In this document: piece after piece, positions 19,076-64,000 of the stretch | How the letters are laid out: each line of letters starts with the position of its first letter | How positions within the stretch are numbered: position 1 is the first letter of the stretch | Assembly: GCA_016212855.1 (NCBI GenBank) | Contig: JACRDP010000004.1 | Span: 1 to 64,000, forward strand | Length of the DNA: 64,000 nt | Direction: 5' to 3' | Origin: Elusimicrobiota bacterium | Lineage (GTDB): Bacteria > Elusimicrobiota > Elusimicrobia > UBA1565 > UBA9628 | Translations under genes and position numbers: made by a program | Notes under the pieces: model-generated | Told to the model about the DNA's origin: nothing | The model's input: the letters and a program-made list of their open reading frames with translations, nothing else | Databases searched by the model: none

Positions 19076-19348
19076 TGGTGTCAGGCCGGCCGATTTTCCG
19101 ATTCGTCTGACGCCCTCGTCGGGCATCGGCAGATCGGACGGGGCATAATCCAGCAGGCCCTCGAGTTCCTCATCACGGTCGCCGTCCACCGCCACCTCGG
19201 GAAACACCGGATCGATGAAGGCCGGACCTTCGAGCGGCGCGTTGAGCGCCGGGGCGTCGTCGAACGCCACCGAGGTCACGACGCCGTCGTCCGCCATTGA
19301 GAAAGAAGCCGTCGCGAGGAACGCCGAAGCAAGGAGTAGGTTTCTCAT
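19013..19348 (-). CDS. Small exported acidic protein, C-terminus rewritten by repeat
   Basis: 111 residues as read. A signal peptide (1-18, FSMAD) and an acidic region up to about residue 80 look like a real gene, supported by TATCCT six bases before ATG 19348. From about residue 81 (RRIGKSAGLTPSSAL) the frame runs through the left inverted repeat and then antisense into the last 63 bases of the zincin gene. The tail is therefore probably not original: the gene may have been truncated when the repeat arrived. Function unknown. Confidence 0.5.
   Translation of the reverse strand: MRNLLLASAFLATASFSMADDGVVTSVAFDDAPALNAPLEGPAFIDPVFPEVAVDGDRDEELEGLLDYAPSDLPMPDEGVRRIGKSAGLTPSSALGPDFLELLVVEAEVVR
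19076..19105. repeat. Left 30-bp terminal inverted repeat
   Basis: Begins TGGTGTCAGGCCGGCC; its exact reverse complement is at 19416-19445. It starts at the base after the zincin stop codon and supplies codons to the small reverse gene. Confidence 0.85.
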
Positions 19349-19354
19349 GTTCCG

Positions 19355-19360
19355 AGGATA
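19355..19360 (-). promoter_or_regulatory. Leaderless-type -10 box (TATCCT)
   Basis: Reverse strand TATCCT, 6-nt spacer, ATG at 19348. Confidence 0.55.
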
Positions 19361-19415
19361 GCCGTAACCGATGACGGCTCCGTTTCAAGGAAGATAAGGT
19401 CCGGTAAAAATCGAT

Positions 19416-19445
19416 CGAATCGGAAAATCGGCCGGCCTGACACCA
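19416..19445. repeat. Right 30-bp terminal inverted repeat
   Basis: Exact reverse complement of 19076-19105; the copy at 11-38 is in the same orientation as this one. Confidence 0.85.
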
Positions 19446-54228: not shown

Positions 54229-54705
54229 CTAGCGGCCGCCGCCGCGAGGTCCGTCCGCGCGCCGCTGCATGCGTTCGCCGCGACGTTCCATCCGCTCGCC
54301 CCGGCGTTCCATGCGCTCGCCCCGGCGTTCCATGCGCTCGCCCCGGCGTTCCGCGCGCTCGCCGCGACGCTCCACGCGTTCGCCGCGACGCTCCAGACGC
54401 TCGCCGCGATTCTCCAGCTTTTCGCCGCGGTTCTCGACTCTCTCTCCCTTATTCTCCAGCTTCTCGCCGCGGTTCTCCATGGCGTTGCGGAAGCGCTCGC
54501 GGAAGTGCGGGTGCTCGGCCAGAAACTTTTTCTTGTCCTCGGCGCTCATATTCTGGAAGCGGTTGTAGATCTTCCGTAAGTTGGGCCCGTCCTGCCCGCC
54601 CTCCTCATTCTGAGCGGGAGCGGCGGCGTCTTCGGCTTGAACCCAAGCCGCTCCCAGGCACAGCATGCCGGTCGCGGCCAGAAACAACGACAGTAAGTGT
54701 CTCAT
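54229..54705 (-). CDS. Exported Arg/Glu heptad-repeat protein
   Basis: 158 residues. Signal peptide 1 to about 24 (WVQAED), a region like the PxxRRxLAEHP helical proteins (RFQNMSAEDKKKFLAEHP), then about ten heptads of the type ERRGERM running to the C-terminus. Very highly charged; likely a long single helix or disordered. Its promoter is conventional (TACAGT about 20 nt upstream, AGGAGA Shine-Dalgarno). Divergent from the ECF sigma gene. Confidence 0.75.
   Translation of the reverse strand: MRHLLSLFLAATGMLCLGAAWVQAEDAAAPAQNEEGGQDGPNLRKIYNRFQNMSAEDKKKFLAEHPHFRERFRNAMENRGEKLENKGERVENRGEKLENRGERLERRGERVERRGERAERRGERMERRGERMERRGERMERRGERMQRRADGPRGGGR
54267..54480. repeat. 21-bp tandem repeats encoding heptads
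   Basis: About ten head-to-tail 21-bp units, three nearly identical (around 54288-54350) and diverging toward 54480. Likely to vary in copy number. Confidence 0.85.
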
Positions 54706-59516: not shown

Positions 59517-59523
59517 TCCGTTG

Positions 59524-61317
59524 GTGCGATTCTTTGCGCATGACGGCACGACCACGCACGGCCCCTTGGGGGTCGACGATCTATTGAAGCTTCCGGGCTT
59601 CGATGGGGACACCCTCGTCTGCCCGGTGGGCTCCGCGGACAGCGCGGACTGGAAACCGGCCCTCGCCTATCCGCCCTTTAAGAAGGCGCTTCTCGAAGCT
59701 CCGGCCGCGGTCTCCGCGCGCGCGCCCGAGCCCACAGGGCCTTCTTTGCCCTCCATGCCGCCGATGCCGTCTTTCCCCCCGGCCGCCACTTTGCCCGTGC
59801 CCTCCGCGTTTCCGCTGCCTTTGCCCGAAGCGCCCGCGCCGGCGGCAAGGACCATCGCCTGTCCCAGCTGCGCTCACGCGAACCTCGAAGAGGCCAAATT
59901 CTGCAACGCCTGCGGCGCGCGCATGGACGGCGCGCCCGCGCCGGCCGCGAAAATAGAACCGGTCCCGGCCCCCGCCGCGGTTCTGCCGCCCGCGACATTC
60001 TCGCCGCCCGCGGCGGCCGAGCCCGATCCGTTCGCCCATCTCGACCCGATGCTGTCCTATCCGGCCGAGCCGGCGCCCATGTCATTTTCCGAACCGCCGC
60101 GCCGTCCTCTGCAGCCCGGGAAAATGGGACAACTCGGCGCGCTCGAGGAGGAAGCTCCCGCGCCGGCTCCGGCGCCGGCTCTCGCTCCCGAGCCCGCAGC
60201 CGAGACAGCGCCCGCGTGGAAGCGCCCGGCCGTGCTCGCCGCCTTCGTGGGCGCGGCGGTGCTCGTCGGCGGCGCGGCGTACGTCGTGCTGCGCAAGCCG
60301 GCGCTCCCTCCGGATACCACGGTCGCCGAGCTGAATCCGTCGGCGACGCCGATGCCGACCGCCGAGCCCGCGCCCGCGCCGCCGCCGCCCGTGGTCTTCA
60401 ACACGGCGCCGCCGCCCGCGCCGCCGCCGATCCGCGCGCCGAAGTCGAAGAAGAAGGCCAAGACGAAGACTCCTCAGCTCGGAGCGCCGATGTCGTTCGA
60501 CGCTCCGGCCCTGAGCGCCAAGCCCAAGCGCGCGCGCAAGCCGCGCCCGGCCCGCGTCGCGCCCCCGCCCGAATCCGAGACGGCGCCGGGCGACGACACC
60601 ATGATCGAAAGCCGCGCCGAGGAGCCTAAATCCGCGCCGAGGAAGAAACGCGGAAAGAAAGCCGCGGCCGCCGGCGGCGAAGACCCCTTGCTCGAATCCT
60701 TGCTCGCCGACGCGACCCAGCCCTCGGGCAAACCCGCCGAGGAAGCCGCGTCGCAGCCCGGCCCCGAACCCGCCGCGGAACCCGAGCGCTCCGCTCCGAA
60801 GATCGGCCAGCGCCCGTCCGGGAACCCGGGCAAGTTCTCCTTACCCGGACTCGAGCGCCCGGTCAGCGCCAGCGACCGCGCGCCGCAGCCCGCGGCGGAG
60901 GAAGCGCCCGCCGCGCTCGCCGAGCCCGGCAAGCCCGCGCCTCCCCCCGGCATCGAGGACGAGCCCGCCAAGCCCGCCGGAAGCGACGACCTGGCTCTCG
61001 TGCAAGTTCACGAACAGTTCGATTTCTGCGCCCAGCTCCTGGCGCAGGGCGCCTACGGCGACCACTACGACACCTGCCTGTGCAAGGACGCCCGCGACGC
61101 CGCACCCTACCGCGGCCGCCGCGGCTTCTACGTGTCGGCCAAGAAGAAGGACTCGAGCGCGGGCAAGCTCGACACGTCGGCGAAGATCCTCTCCTCGAAG
61201 CTCGAGGGCGGCTCGGCGGTCGTGAAGGCGCGCTGGAAGAACGGCGGCGCCGACCGCGGCCACGACGTGTCGCAAACCTGGAAGCTCGAAGACGGCCTCT
61301 GGTGCCAGGCGCCCTGA
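59524..61317 (+). CDS. GYF_2-like / zinc-ribbon protein with one membrane helix
   Basis: 597 residues from GTG. Residues 1 to about 60 resemble the GYF_2 module (DGTTTHGPLGVDDLLKLPGF); a double-CxxC zinc ribbon follows (CPSCAHANLEEAKFCNACGA, about 112-131). A Pro/Ala-rich linker, one membrane helix (about 238-258), a basic Lys/Arg stretch, and a long Pro/Ala/Glu-rich region lead to a compact C-terminal domain (about 500-597) with three Cys (FDFCAQLL, DTCLCKD). Probably cytoplasmic sensing parts linked to an outer domain. Function unknown. Confidence 0.75.
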   Translation: MRFFAHDGTTTHGPLGVDDLLKLPGFDGDTLVCPVGSADSADWKPALAYPPFKKALLEAPAAVSARAPEPTGPSLPSMPPMPSFPPAATLPVPSAFPLPLPEAPAPAARTIACPSCAHANLEEAKFCNACGARMDGAPAPAAKIEPVPAPAAVLPPATFSPPAAAEPDPFAHLDPMLSYPAEPAPMSFSEPPRRPLQPGKMGQLGALEEEAPAPAPAPALAPEPAAETAPAWKRPAVLAAFVGAAVLVGGAAYVVLRKPALPPDTTVAELNPSATPMPTAEPAPAPPPPVVFNTAPPPAPPPIRAPKSKKKAKTKTPQLGAPMSFDAPALSAKPKRARKPRPARVAPPPESETAPGDDTMIESRAEEPKSAPRKKRGKKAAAAGGEDPLLESLLADATQPSGKPAEEAASQPGPEPAAEPERSAPKIGQRPSGNPGKFSLPGLERPVSASDRAPQPAAEEAPAALAEPGKPAPPPGIEDEPAKPAGSDDLALVQVHEQFDFCAQLLAQGAYGDHYDTCLCKDARDAAPYRGRRGFYVSAKKKDSSAGKLDTSAKILSSKLEGGSAVVKARWKNGGADRGHDVSQTWKLEDGLWCQAP

Positions 61318-61342: not shown

Positions 61343-61466
61343 GGGGCCGGAGACACCAACCTCGTCGGGAACGCGCGGCATTGAGCCGCGCTCGGCGATT
61401 GGCCGCGCAGCAAGTGAACGGGGCGCGGCCAATCGACGTCCCGCCGAGGTTGGTGTCTCCGGCCCC
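61343..61466. repeat. Nested inverted-repeat element (three-way junction)
   Basis: Outer arms 61343-61370 and 61439-61466 pair over 28 bases with one mismatch (61365). Inside are two further hairpins: 61373-61379 with 61385-61391 (7 bp, ATTGA loop) and 61396-61408 with 61423-61435 (13 bp perfect, 14-nt loop). It fills the space between convergent genes. The outer arm contains TTGGTGTCTCCGG, similar in its TGGTGTC to the 30-bp repeats. No ORF inside. Confidence 0.8.
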
Positions 61467-61490
61467 CTTAAATCAGGTGATCGCCGCGAC

Positions 61491-64000
61491 TCAGTCTATC
61501 GGGTCAGGGCCGAGGGAGCCCCGCCGGGCTCTAGCCATATGAGTAGGGCCGGCGAGCGATGTTTTTAAGGCGGCGGCGTCGCCCACGACGACGGTGACCA
61601 TTTTAGCCGCGTCCAGGCGCGAGCGGACGGCGGCAAGCGCCGAGGCGGGAGTGGCCTCGGCCAGGCGCGGCTCGTACTGCGCGATGGTCTCGCGCGGATC
61701 GCGCCCGCTCTCGGCGACGGAGGCGATGTAGCCGGTCACGCGGTCGAGCGAGGACAGGCGCATCAGGAACAGCCCGCGCAGGTGCCGGCGCGAGTTGTCG
61801 AGAGCGGCCTGCGGAATCTCCTTCGCGCACAGCTCGCGGACCTCGGCGCGGATTTCCTCGAGCGCGGGGCGAGCGACCTCGGTGCGGCAGTCGGCCGAGG
61901 CCGACCAGACGAGTCCGCGCGAGTACAGCTCGATCGAGGAGTAGGAGCCGTAGGTATAGCCGCGCTTGGTGCGCAGGTTCTCGAACAGGCGCGAGTTCGC
62001 CGTGCCGCCGAGGACGTGATTGGCCAGGACCAAAGACATATAATCCGGATCCTTGGGTCCGGCCTCCGCGGTCGAGGCGAGGACGAGGCTCGCCTGCGCG
62101 GAGCCGGGGCGGTCGACGATCACCGTGCGCGCGGCGCCGGCCGGGGGAAGCCGCGGCGGCTCCGGCGCGGCGTCGCCGGCCTTCCAGCCCGAGAGCGAGC
62201 GTTCGAGCAGCTTCACCGCTTCGGCCGGGTCGATGTCGCCGGCGAGGACCAGGTGCCCGCCGCCCGGCCGCAGGCGGGCGGCGTGGAAGGCGCGCATGCG
62301 CGCCGAATCGACCGCGCCGATCTTCTTCTCGTCGGCCGCGCCCCGCCCGTACGGATGGCCCGGAAACAGTTCGGCTCTCAACCTCTCTTCCGACAGAAAG
62401 TGCGGCTGGGCGCGACGCGCGATCAGGTCCTCGAGCGCGTTCTCGCGCCACAGCTCGACCTCTTCTTCCGGATACGAAGCGGCCGTCAAGGTTTTCGCCA
62501 GCTGTCCGAAGAAGGGTTCCAAGTTGCGCGACAGGCCCGAGGCCGAGAGCTTGAGCCACTCCGATTCGCACGAGGCGCCGAGCGACCAGCCCAAAGAAGT
62601 GTAGGCGCGCGCCACGGCGGCGGCGTCCTCGCCCGCGCGGCCTTTGAGCAGAAGTTCCTCGGAGGCCTGCGCGAGTCCCTCCTGGCCGGCGGCTTCCTGA
62701 ATACGGCCGGCGCGAAGAGCCAGGCGCGCCTCGACGAGGGGCAGGCGCGCGTCGCGGGCAAGCCAGACGGTGAGGCCGTTGGACAGGATGTGCTTGGAAA
62801 TCTCCGGCGCGCGCGCGAAGCGGGCCGGGCCCGGAGGCGGCGGCGACAGCCCCGGTCCGCGCGGCGTCTCCGCCGGCGTCTGCGGAACGGCGGGCTCGGG
62901 CTGGGGCTCGACGGGCTTGCCCGGCTCGACTTGGAGCACGACGCGTCCGCTCGAGCGCATCCAGCGGCGCGCGGCGCGCACGCAGTCGCGGCGATTCACC
63001 TTCAGCAGCGCGTCCAGGTCCTTCCAGAAGCCGGAGGGATCGCCGACGAGGGCGACGTAAGAGCTCAAGGTCTGGGCGCGATCCCCCAATGATTGCTGGC
63101 CCTCGAGCCAGGACCGTTCGATTTGAGTCTTCGCGCGAGCCAACTCCTCGTCGGTGGGACCGGTCTTGTAAAAGCGCTCGAGAACCTTGTCGAGGCTCTT
63201 GGTCACGTCGGTCCGGGCCGAGCCCAGGCGGCCGGAGATGAAGAAGGCGAGCATGTCCGGCCCCCGCGCCGCGACGTGGCTCGACCAGTACGGGATGTGG
63301 CCGCCCGCGGAAACGGCGAGCCGGTCGTTCTTGACGAGCGCCTCGTGCAGCGGGCTGTCCTCGCCGCCGCCGAGCACGGTCATCAAAGCGGTCAGCGCCC
63401 ACCAGTCTTTGCTGCCGCGCGCGGGGGTGTGCCAACCGACGACGGTCAGCGGCGTCTTGGCGAGATGATCGGAGACGGTCTCGGCGCGCTCGCCCTTCAG
63501 CTTCGGCTCGTCGAGCCCGAGCGGGCGCGGACGCGCGCGGCGCGGAATCGGACCGAAAAACTTTTTGACGAGTTTACGCGCCTCGACGGGCGAGACGTCG
63601 CCGGCGATGGCGAGCACGGCGTTGTTCGGGGCGTAGTGACGATCGTAGAACGCGCGCACGTCGTCGAGGGAGGCCGCGCGGATGTCGTCGGCGTCGCCGA
63701 TCGTCGGGTGCGCCGTCTCCCATTTCGTGAACGCGAGCCCGCTCATCACCGCGTCGGTCGCGCGGCGGTAGGGCTGGTTCGTGTAGGTCTGGCGCAGTTC
63801 CTCAAGCACGACCTGCTTTTCGACGGCGAGCTCGCGCTCGGAGATCAAGAGGCCCCGCATGCGGTCGGCCTCGGCCCACAGCACCGACTCGAGCGCGTTG
63901 GCGGGCACGACCTCGTGATAGGTCGTGTTCGTCTTCATCGTATAGGCGTTGTCCACGCCGCCGTGCGACTCGACCAAACGCGAGACCTCGTTCGGCGCGA
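61491..64000 (-). CDS. M16 (pitrilysin-type) zinc peptidase, N-terminus beyond window
   Basis: At least 836 residues, open at the window edge. The visible part begins EVSRLVESHGGVDNAYTMKT, which in this family follows directly after the HxxEH zinc motif, so that motif lies just outside. The third ligand Glu is in EKQVVLEELRQTY. Two M16 halves are present: the first to about 380, then a Pro-rich hinge, then a second half beginning ILSNGLTVWLARDARLP, which lacks HxxEH and is presumably the inactive half. Ends RMSSLDRVTGY-like (LSSLDRVTGYIASVAESG) region and a basic tail. Likely a periplasmic or secreted peptidase. Confidence 0.9.
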   Translation of the reverse strand, partial: APNEVSRLVESHGGVDNAYTMKTNTTYHEVVPANALESVLWAEADRMRGLLISERELAVEKQVVLEELRQTYTNQPYRRATDAVMSGLAFTKWETAHPTIGDADDIRAASLDDVRAFYDRHYAPNNAVLAIAGDVSPVEARKLVKKFFGPIPRRARPRPLGLDEPKLKGERAETVSDHLAKTPLTVVGWHTPARGSKDWWALTALMTVLGGGEDSPLHEALVKNDRLAVSAGGHIPYWSSHVAARGPDMLAFFISGRLGSARTDVTKSLDKVLERFYKTGPTDEELARAKTQIERSWLEGQQSLGDRAQTLSSYVALVGDPSGFWKDLDALLKVNRRDCVRAARRWMRSSGRVVLQVEPGKPVEPQPEPAVPQTPAETPRGPGLSPPPPGPARFARAPEISKHILSNGLTVWLARDARLPLVEARLALRAGRIQEAAGQEGLAQASEELLLKGRAGEDAAAVARAYTSLGWSLGASCESEWLKLSASGLSRNLEPFFGQLAKTLTAASYPEEEVELWRENALEDLIARRAQPHFLSEERLRAELFPGHPYGRGAADEKKIGAVDSARMRAFHAARLRPGGGHLVLAGDIDPAEAVKLLERSLSGWKAGDAAPEPPRLPPAGAARTVIVDRPGSAQASLVLASTAEAGPKDPDYMSLVLANHVLGGTANSRLFENLRTKRGYTYGSYSSIELYSRGLVWSASADCRTEVARPALEEIRAEVRELCAKEIPQAALDNSRRHLRGLFLMRLSSLDRVTGYIASVAESGRDPRETIAQYEPRLAEATPASALAAVRSRLDAAKMVTVVVGDAAALKTSLAGPTHMARARRGSLGPDPID

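What the first reader, a model, noticed from the sequence alone, without database searches (positions are those of the whole stretch)
61343..61466. Large nested inverted-repeat element folding as a three-way junction
A 28-bp outer stem (one mismatch) encloses two separate hairpins of 7 and 13 bp. This is far more structure than a terminator needs. The TGGTGTC in the outer arm is shared with the 30-bp repeats elsewhere, suggesting a REP/MITE family, or it may be a structured RNA at the convergence of two genes.
Basis: seen in the sequence. Interest (0 to 1): 0.6.

Follow-up and report, generated by a model that had tools for sequence, protein, structure and literature searches.

The report
Dispersed three-way-junction palindrome doublets in Elusimicrobiota
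The long palindrome is one copy of a previously undescribed family of roughly 110-base, three-armed fold-back DNA elements scattered between genes of groundwater Elusimicrobiota bacteria, usually as mirror-image pairs; it behaves like a small mobile DNA element of the REPIN kind rather than an RNA or a terminator, and which enzyme moves it is unknown.

Summary
In detail: arms 61343-61370/61439-61466 (28 bp, one mismatch) enclose hairpins of 7 and 13 bp, folding 12 s.d. better than shuffles. It is not unique. A covariance model finds about 190 copies in 15 of 19 congeneric Elusimicrobiota genomes (0-39 each) and a few in other genera of the order; none credible in other-phylum controls. All stems change in sequence while pairing is kept (covariation 0.483 versus 0.135 shuffled), around a conserved core (GGG-MC-hairpin with RTTGA loop). 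All 58 close pairs are inverted (+ then -), lie between genes of any orientation, and disperse as one unit of about 400 bp. At the window's site five syntenic congeners carry no element, so it inserts or is lost. G.U pairs are almost absent (0.5% versus about 15% in RNase P of the same genomes) and A.C is commoner than G.U: the palindrome is maintained at DNA level, not as RNA. Best reading: a singlet copy of a non-autonomous, REPIN-like mobile palindrome of a new three-way-junction type; its mobilising enzyme was not found. The TGGTGTC link to the 30-bp repeats is coincidence: those are ends of IS200-like (Y1) elements. The terminator and structured-RNA readings are disfavoured.

The parts
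61343..61370 (+). left arm of outer stem (28 bp with 61439-61466, one mismatch)
   Evidence: (I19)
61439..61466 (+). right arm of outer stem
   Evidence: (I19)
61371..61372 (+). conserved junction dinucleotide AC (AC or CC in most of the family)
61373..61391 (+). hairpin 1, 7 bp, loop ATTGA; the most conserved part of the family
61396..61435 (+). hairpin 2, 13 bp, variable in sequence
61467..61560 (+). possible decayed remnant of the inverted partner element (weak: 4 of 200 shuffles align as well)
59521..61317 (+). flanking gene: 598 aa, zinc-ribbon-like stretch (below Pfam cut-off); stop 25 bp before the element
61491..63998 (-). flanking gene: M16 peptidase (continues outside the window); its C-terminus is altered relative to congeners that lack the element

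Best explanation
The feature is a single ('singlet') copy of a dispersed Elusimicrobiota family of three-way-junction palindromes. The dispersing unit is usually an inverted doublet: element(+), a spacer (22-170 bp between model ends), element(-), about 260-420 bp in all, with no gene of its own. It works like a REPIN: the two palindromes fold as hairpins in single-stranded or cruciform DNA, and the conserved core (junction plus hairpin 1 with its RTTGA loop) would be recognised by a transposase acting in trans, probably of an ssDNA (HUH) type, which inserts new copies between genes. Perfect pairing is kept by DNA-level processes (template-switch correction between arms, selection for the folded DNA, or both), and cores are exchanged between copies by ectopic conversion. 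Shown: the family, its structure, covariation, doublet architecture, dispersal as a unit, presence/absence at the window site, scarcity of wobble pairs. Inferred: that it moves, that folded DNA is the recognised form, that cores are exchanged by conversion, and that an HUH enzyme moves it (I give that last step about 35%).
For: About 190 copies in 15 of 19 congeners; 58 of 58 close pairs are '+-'. Paralogous doublets in one genome align over the doublet with ends at or near its edges (G007 C22/C12, G016 C2/C8, G013 C425/C298). Window site empty in G007, G001, G008, G015, G018; occupied in G000, G003, G016 and, as a doublet, G011. Flanking gene orientation of doublets: 15 tandem, 5 divergent, 5 convergent, 3 undetermined. 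Covariation 0.483 vs 0.135 shuffled and at most 0.10 slid; 28 of 35 pairs with changes on both sides. In-element pairing 0.91 vs 0.57 between elements. G.U 3, A.C 17, Watson-Crick 604 in the outer stem, vs 79, 9, 424 at variable RNase P pairs of the same genomes. Orthologous copies with the same outer stem but different cores (C4a, C15a).
Against: No mobilising enzyme or autonomous copy was found: no gap of 0.4-8 kb between elements stands out as a transposon, none of 10 Y1_Tnp loci has an element nearby, and the genome with most copies (G013) has no Y1_Tnp match. No target duplication or recent insertion was captured. Many copies sit at sites shared by several species, so current mobility is unproven. 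The window copy itself is a singlet. Outer stems of the two halves of a doublet are mostly different in sequence, unlike classical terminal inverted repeats.
Confidence: 0.63

Rival explanations
1. A structured non-coding RNA (on either strand), for example a 3'-UTR or regulatory RNA, selected as a folded RNA.
For: Strong, compensated three-arm structure and conserved loop and junction; the covariance model is directional (reverse-strand scores far lower); the window copy and G000:C29:64306 each lie sense, about 25-30 bp after a stop codon.
Against: G.U pairs 0.5% of outer-stem cells vs about 15% of variable RNase P pairs in the same genomes, and A.C exceeds G.U. If the opposite strand were the functional one, it would have 26 G.U to 8 A.C, about 2%, still far below RNase P. 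Obligate inverted doublets make little sense for one transcript. No Rfam match reaches its gathering score.
Confidence: 0.12
2. A bidirectional transcription terminator or 3'-end protector between convergent genes.
For: The window copy lies between convergent genes with stops 25 and 24 bp away and is very stable on both strands.
Against: Doublets occur between divergent (5) and tandem (15) genes as well as convergent ones (5). There is no clear U-tract. Five congeners have the same gene pair or its M16 end without the element.
Confidence: 0.08
3. A BIME-like chromosomal DNA site kept for the host's benefit (binding of a nucleoid, gyrase or repair protein), not currently mobile.
For: Copies and structure persist at orthologous sites over roughly 7-20% nucleotide divergence of the flanks; extragenic; DNA-level pairing.
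Against: Copy number varies from 0 to 39 among congeners and four genomes that are at least 91% complete have none; empty sites at the window locus.
Confidence: 0.15

Closest known systems
REPINs (REP doublets forming hairpins; PMC3116915) and BIMEs
   Same: Extragenic, dispersed, inverted doublets with a variable spacer as the apparent replicating unit, singlets beside them, compatible with folding in ssDNA; conserved stem mismatches in part of the family recall the E. coli REP bulge (PMC8266576).
   Different: Each unit is a 105-135 nt three-way junction, not a 20-50 nt hairpin; no GTAG-type tetranucleotide; at most 39 copies per genome; outer stems are not conserved in sequence; no TnpAREP-like gene next to them.
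MITEs
   Same: Short, gene-less, dispersed, palindromic, present/absent at orthologous sites.
   Different: No fixed terminal inverted repeats between the two halves, no target duplication seen, no parent transposon found.
IS200-like (Y1_Tnp) elements of the same genus and their derivatives, including the window's 30-bp repeats
   Same: Coexist in the same genomes; one three-way-junction copy is nested in such an element (G001:C210).
   Different: Ends are GTGTCAGGC-type inverted repeats and do not fold as three-way junctions.
Template-switch-maintained hairpins (PMC8794818)
   Same: Long stems kept perfect through coordinated double changes with few wobble intermediates.
   Different: That work describes a mutational mechanism, not a dispersed element family.

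Membership tests
REP / REPIN | extragenic, dispersed, multi-copy palindrome | tested here: met
   about 190 copies in 15 congeners; inspected copies intergenic
REP / REPIN | inverted doublet with spacer as dispersing unit | tested here: met
   58 of 58 close pairs '+-'; paralogous doublets align as units
REP / REPIN | simple 20-50 nt hairpin preceded by GTAG-type tetranucleotide | tested here: not met
   three-way junction of 105-135 nt; hairpin 1 is preceded by GGGRMC
REP / REPIN | cognate TnpAREP/RAYT gene flanked by the element | tested here: not met
   none of 10 Y1_Tnp loci has an element; G013 has most copies and no Y1_Tnp match
MITE | short, no ORF of its own, dispersed, presence/absence at orthologous sites | tested here: met
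MITE | matching terminal inverted repeats and target-site duplication | tested here: inconclusive
   outer stems of the two halves differ; flanks too diverged to see duplications
MITE | parent transposon sharing the ends | tested here: not met
   none recognised among element pairs 0.4-8 kb apart; fragmented assemblies could hide one
Structured RNA family | covariation supporting a common structure | tested here: met
Structured RNA family | wobble pairs tolerated, G.U much commoner than A.C | tested here: not met
Structured RNA family | transcribed | not testable with these tools
   no RNA-seq available
Known Rfam family | score above the gathering threshold | tested here: not met
   only sub-threshold hits, mostly miRNA models
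Intrinsic terminator | located at gene 3' ends, U-tract after the stem | tested here: not met
   doublets also between divergent and tandem genes; no clear U-tract

The most novel reading that the evidence does not exclude
A distinct class of mobile DNA whose recognised form is a cloverleaf-like three-way junction of single-stranded or cruciform DNA, with sequence-free outer stems maintained by arm-to-arm templating, exchangeable tips, and a mobilising or binding protein that reads shape plus a small core, not any described TnpAREP/REP pair.
Probability: 0.3. Interest if true: 0.68.

Novelty: new variant of a known kind. Interest (0 to 1): 0.46.

Why it matters
It adds a structurally new member, with a three-way junction instead of a single hairpin, to the small set of bacterial dispersed palindrome families. 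It offers a natural data set of about 190 copies with orthologues for asking how long perfect palindromes persist in genomes: the near absence of wobble intermediates separates DNA-level maintenance from RNA selection. It also warns that strong covariation alone does not prove a functional RNA.

Tried and rejected
Link to the 30-bp repeats through TGGTGTC: rejected; 1 of 60 elements has it, and 7 of 10 Y1_Tnp genes in the genus have a clear flanking inverted repeat, six of GTGTCAG/GTGCCAG type. Sense 3'-end element in convergent genes: tempting from the window and from '+-' pairs, rejected by gene orientation. Y1_Tnp as mobiliser: no association found. Autonomous copy with a gene between two elements: none; the window's own '+ M16 gene -' arrangement is not one, because the two sites vary independently in congeners. 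Viral and plasmid origin: no match to a core pattern in IMG/VR or to the element in plasmids. Literature on Elusimicrobiota palindromes: nothing relevant in the held library. Early assignment of G007:C15 as the M16 orthologue was wrong; the best match in G007 is C125.

Full report
Observation. Arms 61343-61370 and 61439-61466 are complementary over 28 bp with one mismatch. Inside are hairpin 1 (61373-61391, 7 bp, loop ATTGA) and hairpin 2 (61396-61435, 13 bp). Folded as RNA the region gives -115.5 kcal/mol against -64.2 +/- 4.3 for shuffles (z -12.0); the reverse strand is equally strong. It fills the gap between two convergent genes: a 598-aa protein with a weak zinc-ribbon signal, and an M16 peptidase.

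It is a family. BLAST with the element already finds partial copies in the own genome and in many congeners. Extracting these by fold shows the same architecture each time: long outer stem, a two-base junction (AC/CC), hairpin 1 with a conserved RTTGA-type loop, a variable hairpin 2, then a short A-rich-start junction and CCC. A covariance model (R1) finds 0-39 copies per genome in 19 congeners, about 190 in 15 genomes. Fewer copies (1-3 per genome) occur in other genera of the family and order. R1 gives no credible match in 44 loci from other phyla.

Structure under constraint. In an alignment of 40 elements 87.4% of cells pair. The covariation score is 0.483 against 0.135 +/- 0.009 for shuffles and at most 0.10 for slid registers, and 28 of 35 pairs show changes on both sides. 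The left arm of an element pairs with its own right arm at 91% of positions but with other elements' right arms at 57%, while left arms are only 49% identical to each other. Parts of the family carry conserved internal mismatches: two positions of the outer stem near the junction, and a TC/TC internal loop in hairpin 1.

DNA, not RNA. In the variable outer stem there are 604 Watson-Crick, 3 G.U and 17 A.C cells. At variable positions of RNase P RNA from 14 of the same genomes the numbers are 424, 79 and 9. An RNA kept by selection should tolerate G.U far more than A.C; here wobble is nearly absent and A.C is commoner. If only the opposite strand mattered the wobble share would still be about 2%. 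Compensation without wobble intermediates is what coordinated, arm-to-arm templated change would give; template switching has been reported to create and maintain RNA hairpins this way (PMC8794818, abstract). This does not separate templating from selection for folded DNA.

Doublet architecture. Of 133 clusters, 58 are doublets and all 58 have the order + then -, with hairpin 1 towards the outside; gaps between model ends are 22-170 bases. Singlets number 75, of which 13 lie within 600 bases of a contig start. Within single genomes, doublets at unrelated places align over the whole doublet including the spacer, with similarity stopping at or near its edges. Doublets sit between tandem (15), divergent (5) and convergent (5) genes, 3 undetermined. 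Inverted doublets as the apparent replicating unit, randomly placed in extragenic space, are the properties reported for REPINs (PMC3116915).

Presence and absence. At the window's site the gap after the M16 stop is a few to about 30 bases, with no element, in G007, G001, G008, G015 and G018. The element is present in G000, G003 and G016, and as a doublet in G011. In G000 the M16 C-terminus reads on past the stop position of its congeners into the extra DNA. The extra DNA downstream of the window element may include a decayed partner, but the alignment is weak (4 of 200 shuffles as good). At several shared sites the outer stem is the same between species but the core differs, for example G016/G003 at C4, which points to ectopic conversion between copies.

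What it is not. The 30-bp repeats at 10-40, 19076-19105 and 19416-19445 resemble the inverted repeats that flank Y1_Tnp (IS200-like) genes in this genus (7 of 10 loci with a clear flanking repeat, six of the GTGTCAG/GTGCCAG type). The three-way-junction elements do not flank those genes, and TGGTGTC occurs in the outer arm of the window copy alone. Rfam has no match at its thresholds.

Mechanism and limits. I read the family as non-autonomous mobile DNA working like a REPIN: folded single-stranded or cruciform DNA, recognised through the junction and hairpin 1 by an enzyme supplied in trans. By the defining features of REPs (short hairpin, GTAG-type motif, neighbouring TnpAREP; PMC8266576) it is not a REP. 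I found neither enzyme nor autonomous copy, and no insertion caught in the act; many copies are old and shared between species. A host-beneficial DNA site remains the main rival. Gene calls used for flanking orientation come from a simple codon-position GC caller and may err at individual loci. All genus genomes but one (G011) are fragmented assemblies, and palindromes break assemblies, so copy numbers are lower bounds.

Noticed in passing
window 19076-19445 and 10-40: Two 30-bp perfect inverted repeats (TGGTGTCAGGCCGGCC...) flank 310 bp, with a third, near-identical copy at the window start; they resemble ends of IS200-like Y1_Tnp elements of the genus, so 19076-19445 looks like a derivative of such an element without the transposase.
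   Followed up: partly
L267 and L268 (G003, G016), between the M16 stop and the neighbouring gene: A second, unrelated long palindrome (cggaaatcatccgcc ... ggcggatgatttcc) sits beside the three-way-junction element; G015 has only a short stretch of it.
   Followed up: no
L239 and L242 (G053, same class): Two similar distant relatives of the element with extended outer repeats (CTTTTGCA...TGCAAAAG type), in a genome of a different family.
   Followed up: no
G001:C210:1662-1892 (L136): A three-way-junction element nested inside the inverted repeats (GGTGTCAGGCC...) of a Y1-type element.
   Followed up: no
window 54237-54469: Run of degenerate 21-bp direct repeats (8 overlapping copies), possibly coding for a heptad-like repeat.
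   Followed up: no
window 61491-61560: M16 peptidase C-terminus extended by about 18 residues relative to congeners, read from DNA that is absent in species without the element.
   Followed up: partly
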